64,000 nt of DNA from Prosapia bicincta (Eukaryota; Arthropoda; Insecta; Hemiptera; Cercopidae), in contig JBAIZL010000001.1 in the NCBI GenBank assembly GCA_036971475.1, positions 112,976,350 through 113,040,349 on the forward strand. Direction: 5' to 3'. Numbering within the stretch: the first letter of the stretch is position 1; the number at the start of each line of letters is the position of its first letter. Positions 10,301-13,300 of this stretch are shown piece after piece. Both the position numbers and the translations under genes were made by a program. Under the pieces are notes generated by a model. The model worked only from the letters and a program-made list of their open reading frames with translations, did not search any database and was not told where the DNA came from.

Positions 10301-13300
10301 AAAACCAGTAGCATTGTACTCTGGAAATTGTAATTTTACCCACTCCTTTGGTAACATACATACCAATTCTTATTACTTAATATAACATTAAATTTGTTAT
10401 TTTTGTTAAACTGTTTTCTTATAATTTCACTTTCAAAATATGTTCAATTTATTCAATTTAAGCTACCTCGCTTTTAGGCTATCTAATTGGAACTATTATA
10501 CTTAATTTAAATTCATTAACATGTTCAGCACGGTTAGTGACCCTGCATGCTCTGGGTTCCCTTACGAGGCACGAGAGCGTGCCGGTGTGCTCCCCACTTG
10601 CCTTTAGATTGAAGGAAGCTCACCGGCACGCTCACTCCCAGCCTAATTGTAACTTCTCTAGTGTCGATACATGTTTTTATAAAGGTTGGATTTTTACGTC
10701 AGTGCTTCAGAAGAGTTTGAAGAACATTGTGCCTGAGTCGTTTTTAAATCCGACCATCCCAAGTTAATTTTTAATGCTTCAATTGAAACAATGCTTCAGG
10801 GAGTTTTACTAACAGATTTAATTTGGTTTAATTTTTATATTTTAATGTTTTTTTAAGTTTGAACCACTTTACCCTGTAAAATATCCGGTAAAAACAACGA
10901 TCATAAAAATAAACTAAGCTTTCTGAACTAACGCAAGAATAAACGATAACTGTCCTATTAGAGTGAATGAACCAACTCGAGGGGGGAACAGACTATTGTA
11001 AATATGAGTCATTGACAAAATGCTTGGACGCCCTGAAACCTAATGTGTCATCATAAGATTGTAGTAAACAAATGTCAGCTAATCTCGGCTATAAATAGTC
11101 TCGGACATGACATATGCATTATCTATGTCTCCATTTACATTATTGATATCTATGGCTTTGTAAAACACATGGCACAAATAGAAACAAACATTCCAAGTTA
11201 AACGTTGAGGGCTTATTTTAGTATGTAGTATATTTTAGTAGTAGGGTCTATAGTTTTGTATGTAAATTATCTTTTTTTCTGTCTTTTATTGTGTTTTATT
11301 ATTTGTCATACAGTATTTTATCATTTGTATTTCATTTTTTTAATTGTGACCACATAAATAAAACAATATTTTAGTGTCTAATACACTGTTCTGATGTCCC
11401 CAATAAACCTAAATAGGTTAAAAATAAAATTATTGAGATGTAAACTATGCAACCCGCATAGCATTCCACTGCCATCAGAGATGGAAGCTAACGGAAAAAC
11501 ATACAGTAGTTTGATCAGATCACCAATTTCGCCGCGGTGCTGAAAGTGTTAAACCTTGATAGAACCATTAACATTTAGTCCTCTTGACCCCAAGTATCGC
11601 TAAACATTTGCTCCAATGTAGTAGTATGTTTTTAGGTTAGTAGTAATAAGTTTAGTAATACAGTATATTGAAATCATTATTGTATGAGTATAACAGCGTC
11701 ATTTCACTAATTTGTATCAACATTTAACTTATAAACATAATTTTATATTACTTCAGTTCTGGTTAGAAATTGTTCACTTTCACAAAATTTCTTTGTAAAC
11801 TACCACAGCGTACATTACCAAAATTTATTATTATTGTTAAGCCTTATTGTTCGAATTTCTAATGGTTAGATTTCAGAACTATTAAACTATATTATAATTT
11901 TAATTTCATTACGTCACCAACTTAATTTTATGCAAAATTTTGACACTTGTAATACTTTAATTTTATTGTTAAGTTATCATTAATTCAGTTCAAATTTCAA
12001 TTACGGCAAGTATCATTGAATGTTATTTCTCAAAGGTTAACAAACTCATTGGTGAACTACAGTAAATTGCTGATGGAAGCAAAGTGCTGACTGTGGCAAT
12101 GATGTCATCCCAACAATATAACATGAAATTCAATGATTCCATACTAGATTGATGCTACTTAGAAGGTTTTAGATGTTACCATCTAGGAAAGTCTGATCAA
12201 AATCAATAAAGTTGATGAAATCAAAGACAAATTTAATAACTTGTTTTAGTGACGCTAGTGAAGTAACAAAAGTAGTTAAGAAGGAAAAGTTGACATATAG
12301 ACAATCATCAGATTTTGTGGTAAGACTTTCTTTTTCTTGCTCAGTATAGTTGTGATTCGTTGTCAGTCAGTAAACGATGTTTGTTGTAATTAATGAATAA
12401 AAATATGGTACAACTCACAAATATAAAAATTTTTTATTTCATACGCGTTTCAACGACTAATTTGTCATCATCCTCAGTGAAGAAACACAAATCAAATTAA
12501 CTAAAAAAATATTAAACATAACCTATAAAGTTTTAACAAAAGTAAAAACGTTTATAGATGTTTGTTGTATTTAGTACTGTGTAAACTTTAAAAATCTATT
12601 TTTTTATGCAAAATTTAATGCAATTTTAAATTTAAAAACTACCTAATGTAAATACATACAAATTTTTTTGTAATTAGTGTATATTTTTATATCCAAAGCA
12701 AACATAATAGTGAGATCTTTTAATTGACTTTGTCATTGAAAAATATAGGGTAGTAGAGTTGCTGTAGAAACTAACCACATTAGTACCCGTCAGCACCTTC
12801 AGACAGCATAGAGCGTTAATTAACAAAAATGTCATGCTCAACACTTGCGCCTGTCACCTCAACAATGTACTTGTCAATCTCCTATCCCAAACACTTCAGC
12901 TCAACCAAGCACATCACTGTCCTCAATTAGCTATACACAAACTCAATCAAGCTTTCGACAATAGATTTAGGCCTTACCTACTCCATTGATTAACACACCA
13001 ATTAACAGTGGTTTTATAACATACTTCAGTGCGACTCATGTAGATCTCTGTCAATCTTCAAATTGAAGAGACCAAACATGTGGATTCTAGCCTCATTTTA
13101 ACTGTCTCGCCAATAGTGAGTGTTTATTGGATTCTAAGAATTCACATCAAACGAGTATGTACAGAGTTATAAAGGCTATTCATTGCTATGATAATGAATT
13201 GCTGATAAATAGAAAGTGACTGAACATGAAAAAGTGTAGTTGTTACTTTATATCATAACAACATCATCTAGCATTGTATTCGACTTCATTTAAGCTTCTG

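What the first reader, a model, noticed from the sequence alone, without database searches (positions are those of the whole stretch)
12434..12486. Hammerhead-like ribozyme with palindromic ACGCGU stem III, antisense in RagC intron 1
The minus strand has every conserved core base (CUGANGA and GAA), a 6-bp stem II, a 4-bp stem I continued past an internal loop, and a self-complementary stem III that can pair only between two molecules. Dimeric hammerheads of this kind are known from Penelope-like elements. Compared with the copies at 17.6 and 36.7 kb, stem I (UUCA/UGAA, AUUC/GGAU, AUUC/GAGU), stem II (GAUGAC/GUCGUU, GUUGG/CCAAC) and stem III (ACGCGU, AAGCUU) all differ while pairing is kept. 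An unpaired extra base between A9 and stem II is common to all.
Basis: partly seen in the sequence, partly recalled or inferred. Interest (0 to 1): 0.85.

Follow-up and report, generated by a model that had tools for sequence, protein, structure and literature searches.

The report
Hammerhead ribozyme in small repeated element
The spot holds a small RNA-cutting motif of the hammerhead kind, carried by a short mobile repeat with dozens of close copies in this animal's genome; it looks like the minimal hammerheads known from Penelope-type jumping genes, and nobody has yet tested whether it cuts.

Summary
The motif is real. On the minus strand at 12438-12481 every hammerhead core letter is present, with stem I (4 bp), stem II (6 bp), GAA and a self-complementary stem III. 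A descriptor finds 9 such sites in the window, against 4 in 200 Markov-shuffled windows. Rfam's hammerhead models miss it.

It is no lone relic. A search of the animal's genome found 42 matches, with only 40 of 213 first-look candidates scored. In 39 fetched loci the matches stay within about 170 bp, the insert outlined here by a 13-bp direct repeat. Of 60 instances 44 keep the whole hammerhead; 19 of 39 loci hold head-to-head pairs; one holds three tandem units.

Sister motifs sit at the ends of abundant Penelope-type elements: in 16 of 27 long RT frames the frame's UGA stop lies inside stem I.

Best reading: a Penelope-type minimal hammerhead, acting as a dimer, in a small non-autonomous element. 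The extra U after A9 is kept in 58 of 60 instances. The AUG that it spells is not the start of the main frame in the Penelope family where I could look. Cleavage is untested.

The parts
12438..12481 (-). hammerhead motif, stem I to stem I'
12470..12470 (-). extra U between A9 and stem II
   Evidence: kept in 58 of 60 genome instances
12443..12448 (-). self-complementary stem III, ACGCGU
12441..12442 (-). predicted cleavage between 12442 (A17) and 12441
   Evidence: position by the hammerhead rule; untested
12389..12556 (-). 168-bp insert holding the motif; genome copies match only this stretch
12557..12569 (-). direct repeat TACAACAAACATC, upstream copy, possible target-site duplication
12376..12388 (-). 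same direct repeat, downstream copy; genome copies run up to 8 bases into it, so the true duplication may be shorter
17589..17637 (+). sister motif, canonical core, stem III AAGCUU; second copy 17508- in the same palindrome
36716..36764 (+). sister motif, canonical core; second copy 36635- in the same palindrome
7979..8021 (+). sister motif of family A, core UCGACAA; second copy 7968-
24482..24525 (+). family A motif 3 bases after a TAA that closes a short piece of the element's frame
1826..1871 (+). sister motif of family D, core UUGACAA, stem III ACGGCCGU
21916..24578 (.). decayed Penelope-type element, two head-to-head arms, RT and GIY-YIG-like frames

Best explanation
The 12.4 kb motif is a working-looking copy of a Penelope-type minimal type I hammerhead, carried by a small non-autonomous mobile element of about 170 bp. 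Two motifs on one transcript with tandem units, or on two RNAs, would pair through their self-complementary stems III, complete each other's stems I, and cut after A17. On tandem transcripts this would release units of about 145 nt, which a Penelope-type RT of the same genome could copy back into DNA. At 12.4 kb itself there is one motif and the host gene runs the other way, so it most likely does nothing to RagC. Shown: sequence, pairing, repeat unit, copy number above 40, head-to-head and tandem layouts, gene structure, the same architecture at the ends of Penelope-type elements. Inferred: dimer action, cleavage, unit-length RNA, mobilisation by Penelope RT.
For: Core and three helices; far above chance in the window. 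42 matches genome-wide with 40 of 213 candidates scored, the two lowest of them shorter partners in inverted pairs. In 39 loci no match starts before base 7 or ends after base 190 of the 194-base query that includes both direct repeats. 60 instances: 44 fully intact, stem I pairs in 59, stem II in 56, stem III in 51, core in 56, GAA never changed in 180 letters; the third pair of stem II is U-G in 36, C-G in 19, U-A in 2, other in 3. Head-to-head pairs in 19 of 39 loci, three tandem units plus one inverted in L269, as described for Penelope pseudo-LTRs (PMC3846280 passages). Sister family A: in 18 fetched loci, 27 frames of 450 aa or more hold the RT piece and 16 of 27 have the hammerhead core 4 bases past the start of their UGA stop, so that the stop lies in stem I. 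Dimer MFE of the trimmed 24488 and 1832 motifs is exactly the double hammerhead.
Against: No Rfam hammerhead match. Copies were ranked by likeness to the query, so their conservation is biased upward, and young copies look intact without selection. The dimer MFE is another fold for 12477 (-19.7 against -16.5 kcal/mol; it keeps stems II and III but not stem I), 17595, 36722 and 7985; with flanks 24488 keeps the hammerhead dimer, 1832 does not. 12477 has no TA tract downstream, unlike 18 of 21 other listed sites or weak sites (12477 is one of the three without). No RT frame was found joined to a 12.4 kb unit. The Anolis Penelope ribozyme cut only with protein added, and its cutting was not needed for insertion in vitro (PMC11167929).
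Confidence: 0.85

Rival explanations
1. The 12.4 kb unit is not a separate element but the solo pseudo-LTR of a second, autonomous Penelope family.
For: Same layout as family A pseudo-LTRs; divergent GIY-YIG-like pieces end some 275-305 bases before a unit in the same orientation in L251, L252 (38% identity, likely one duplicated event) and L275 (30%).
Against: No such piece within the fetched 1-1.5 kb in most of the 39 loci; the frames in L251 and L252 carry internal stops; no shared junction was shown.
Confidence: 0.35
2. Extra U explained by code: A9-U-G10.1 is the start codon of the element's protein.
For: AUG in 9 of 9 window hits and 57 of 60 genome instances; the Anolis ORF is reported to begin at stem II with the cut 26 bp past the start, here 25 to 31 bases from the A.
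Against: In family A the AUG opens 12 codons and meets a stop in the 3 of 3 elements where a motif lies upstream; where motif and frame are close (one element) the main frame begins about 99 bases later, past three in-frame stops. In the 12.4 kb copy it opens 4 codons. Splicing was not excluded.
Confidence: 0.12
3. Extra U is a structural part of the core, favoured for catalysis.
For: CChMVd has an extra A at the same place and A-to-U raised trans cleavage 3-4 fold (PMC3705267 passages); U in four families.
Against: No activity data for these motifs; family B has A there.
Confidence: 0.45
4. Not a ribozyme: inverted-repeat DNA elements whose palindromes mimic a hammerhead.
For: Many copies are palindromes; no Rfam match.
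Against: A palindromic DNA element has no reason to hold CUGANGA, GAA, A15.1-U16.1 and a covarying 3-8 pair.
Confidence: 0.08

Closest known systems
Minimal type I hammerheads of Penelope-like elements (Cervera and de la Pena 2014; Lunse et al. 2017). Neither text was held; known from citing passages and recall
   Same: type I order, short self-complementary stem III, dimer action expected, tied to Penelope-like elements
   Different: unpaired U after A9 in all nine window hits; U3-A8 in families A and D; whether the published set shows these could not be checked
Anolis PAc Penelope hammerhead (PMC11167929, passages and section 3 part 2 seen)
   Same: stems I and II, place at the edge of the reading frame, cut 26 bp past an AUG
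   Different: PAc is reported with C3 and G8 and with its ORF starting there; family A here has U3-A8 and its main frame starts later
Metazoan retrozymes (PMC7229834 and PMC7761336, passages seen)
   Same: small non-autonomous units, tandem in L269, type I hammerhead
   Different: minimal stem III and no loop-loop contact identified; head-to-head pairs prevail; tandem units in 1 of 39 loci
Chrysanthemum chlorotic mottle viroid plus-strand hammerhead (PMC3705267, passages seen)
   Same: one extra base between A9 and stem II
   Different: a viroid; the base is A, not U
Natural U3-A8 hammerheads (PMC3088659, section 8 seen)
   Same: C3-G8 changed to U3-A8
   Different: here together with the extra U, and with C4 in family A

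Membership tests
Hammerhead ribozyme | CUGANGA and GAA around a three-way junction | tested here: met
   sister families A and D deviate at positions 3, 8 (and 4)
Hammerhead ribozyme | A15.1-U16.1 and H17 not G | tested here: met
   H17 A in 49 and U in 11 of 60 instances
Hammerhead ribozyme | stem II directly after A9 | tested here: not met
   extra U at 12470; an extra base is known from CChMVd, so this is a variant, not an exclusion
Hammerhead ribozyme | match to Rfam models | tested here: not met
Hammerhead ribozyme | self-cleavage at the predicted bond | not testable with these tools
   needs RNA
Penelope-type dimeric minimal hammerhead | short self-complementary stem III | tested here: met
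Penelope-type dimeric minimal hammerhead | lies in a pseudo-LTR of a Penelope element | tested here: inconclusive
   met for family A; for the 12.4 kb family only divergent GIY-YIG-like pieces nearby
Penelope-type dimeric minimal hammerhead | second motif in tandem on one transcript | tested here: not met
   12477 alone on its strand between 7968 and 17508; met in 1 of 39 other loci, L269
Metazoan retrozyme | tandem repeats of 150-450 bp with canonical type I hammerheads | tested here: not met
   units about 145 nt, tandem in 1 of 39 loci, minimal stem III
Penelope-like element (family A, not the 12.4 kb unit) | RT followed by GIY-YIG endonuclease in one frame, inverted or tandem pseudo-LTRs | tested here: inconclusive
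   RT by PF00078, E 1.6e-8; GIY-YIG by recalled motif only, no Pfam match; inverted and tandem layouts seen

The most novel reading that the evidence does not exclude
The 12.4 kb family is a halfway form between Penelope pseudo-LTRs and retrozymes: a 170-bp non-autonomous element with a dimer-only hammerhead that cuts tandem transcripts into units of about 145 nt, copied by the genome's very abundant Penelope RT. Its core, like that of the sister families, needs an extra U after A9, a fixed variation of the hammerhead in this genome, and in the autonomous family the stop codon of the protein is built into stem I, so that translation reaching the end of the frame would open the ribozyme.
Probability: 0.3. 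Interest if true: 0.55.

Novelty: new member of a known kind. Interest (0 to 1): 0.42.

Why it matters
It shows a large set of Penelope-type hammerheads that Rfam's models miss, with a fixed extra base in the core and a protein stop codon inside stem I of the autonomous family. The role of these minimal ribozymes is called unknown in review (PMC7761336 passages); a small element with near-identical copies and tandem units gives a simple system to test it.

Tried and rejected
Rfam at gathering score for the window and up to E 10 for three stretches: no hammerhead.

Covariance model not built: MAFFT shifted the cores of families A and D. Descriptor scans used instead. A one-mismatch scan gave the same five sites and 1.45 hits per shuffled window (40 shuffles, up to 5), so it adds nothing.

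RT and GIY-YIG-like pieces found nothing in the protein collection or viral contigs; phages: none. The RT piece weakly matches one solved bacterial-type RT chain, 8bgj, E 1e-4, no help.

Start-codon idea for the extra U: first favoured, then tested on long frames and not borne out in family A. Solitary-relic idea for 12.4 kb: dropped.

Family B (4.25, 19.8-20.5, 21.6 kb; UUGACAA then A): stem II varies with pairing kept, but no good stem I; left open.

Full report
Observation. The minus strand at 12481-12438 reads UUCA-CUGAGGA-U-GAUGAC-AAAUUA-GUCGUU-GAA-ACGCGU-A-UGAA. Every conserved hammerhead core letter is present; stem I has 4 pairs, stem II 6; stem III is an exact palindrome too short to form a hairpin. 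The canonical descriptor finds five sites in the window against a mean of 0.01 per window in 100 Markov shuffles. Allowing U3-A8 and C4 gives nine: 1832+, 7985+, 17595+, 24488+, 36722+, 36635-, 17508-, 12477-, 7968-; the same scan finds 4 in 200 Markov windows and 1 in 240 viral loci (2,079,285 bases).

Independence. The nine are four sequence families: 12477; 17.6 and 36.7 kb (each a palindrome with two motifs); A (8.0 kb palindrome, 24.5 kb); D (1.8 kb). Decayed relatives lie at 22.0 and 63.0 kb, and a weaker family C (core UCGUCAA) at 37.05+ and 36.25- was found by eye. On seven sequences, C included, stems I and II change on both sides with pairing kept and the pair 3-8 is C-G in three, U-A in four; pairing was a condition of the scan, so this describes and does not test.

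Genome copies. After many unanswered tries the genome (2.2 Gb) was searched with the 63-base motif: 42 matches, 213 first-look candidates, 40 of them scored, so the count is a lower bound. I held 39 loci besides the window's own. With a query of insert plus both direct repeats (194 bases) no match starts before base 7 or ends after base 190, which sets the unit at about 170 bp and fits the insert seen between the 13-bp repeats at 12557-12569 and 12376-12388. Because copies run up to 8 bases into the downstream repeat, the duplication may be shorter than 13. Sixty instances cover the motif: 44 are intact in all helices, core, A15.1-U16.1 and H17; the extra U is kept in 58 and A9-U-G in 57; GAA is unchanged in 180 of 180 letters; the third pair of stem II occurs as U-G, C-G and U-A. 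These are the copies most like the query, so they say little about old ones. In 19 of 39 loci motifs lie on both strands, and L269 has three direct units about 145 nt apart plus an inverted one.

Penelope. In the window a decayed element at 21916-24578 has an RT piece (PF00078, E 1.6e-8) and GIY-YIG-like frames (recalled motif; no Pfam match). A family A motif follows each arm: in the plus arm a TAA lies 3 bases before stem I, in a frame open for only 40 codons; in the minus arm a TAG lies 14 bases before it. Genome-wide, the RT piece gave 150 matches in 150 scored of 28,719 first-look candidates. In 18 fetched loci, chosen for long frames, 27 frames of 450 aa or more hold that RT piece; in 16 of 27 the family A core begins 4 bases after the first base of the UGA stop, so the stop is part of stem I (G-UGA-U). 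The other 11 lack it there, end at other stops, or run off the stretch. Three frames have a family A motif upstream; its AUG opens 12 codons and then a stop in all three. In the one where the frame starts nearby, it begins 99 bases on, in the same frame but after three stops. So the AUG is not the start of the main frame there, unless splicing joins them, which I did not test; this lowered my first odds for the start-codon idea from 0.3 to 0.12. The Anolis element, in contrast, is reported to start its ORF at stem II (PMC11167929).

Is the 12.4 kb unit Penelope-made? Layouts agree: head-to-head pairs with palindromic junctions are described for Penelope (PMC3846280 passages), and (TA)n tracts follow 18 of 21 window sites, family B included, within 260 bases, 17 of 21 at +80 to +175, against 3.1% of 20,000 random places; palindrome arms are not independent, and 12477 is one of three without a tract. 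Penelope protein pieces near units: 7 matches in 7 of 39 loci. L280 and L266 are family A pieces with their own motif; L251, L252 and L275 have divergent GIY-YIG-like frames ending 274-305 bases before a unit core in the same orientation. I take the partner as unresolved.

Folding. For the trimmed 24488 and 1832 motifs the dimer MFE is exactly the double hammerhead; for 12477 stems II and III form but not stem I; 17595, 36722 and 7985 prefer other folds. With flanks only 24488 of these keeps it. The energy model has no term for the core.

The extra base. CChMVd carries an extra A at this place, and A-to-U raised trans cleavage 3-4 fold (PMC3705267 passages). That favours a structural reading, untested here. 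Full-text searches (2, 4 and 3 papers) found no statement of it; of those nine I looked at passages in five (PMC6466107, PMC7229834, PMC11167929, PMC10085705, PMC6155905) and not in PMC8490949, PMC6515669, PMC11014351, PMC4918200. The two main papers were not held, so I do not claim it is unpublished.

Limits. The species is unknown to me, counts are lower bounds, family D and the 17.6 kb family were not searched genome-wide, and nothing here shows cleavage.

Noticed in passing
52408-52776 +: Piece of a bacterial-type exporter ABC ATPase: PF00005 E 2.4e-11; 476 of 541 candidates match at E 0.001, 120 listed, several named EexD or protease/lipase exporter; one 96% identical over 56% of the query is an unnamed protein of the beetle Callosobruchus chinensis. 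Possible transfer from an endosymbiont.
   Followed up: partly
4215-4300, 19625-20542, 21375-21845: Family B palindromic elements with a hammerhead-like core UUGACAA followed by A; stem I unclear.
   Followed up: partly
35486-37825: Palindrome of about 2.3 kb with the 36.7 kb hammerhead element at its centre and a frame MLDEILAKRRNCEFMDC... in both arms that starts at a hammerhead-like AUG.
   Followed up: partly
L269 780-1500: Three direct units of the 12.4 kb family about 145 nt apart and one inverted.
   Followed up: yes
59273-61013; 29012-29675; 39800-40414: Tandem repeats with periods near 155, 94 and 74-75 bp.
   Followed up: no
3356-3594; 38921-39251: Imperfect palindromes; none of the nine descriptor hits lies in them.
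   Followed up: no
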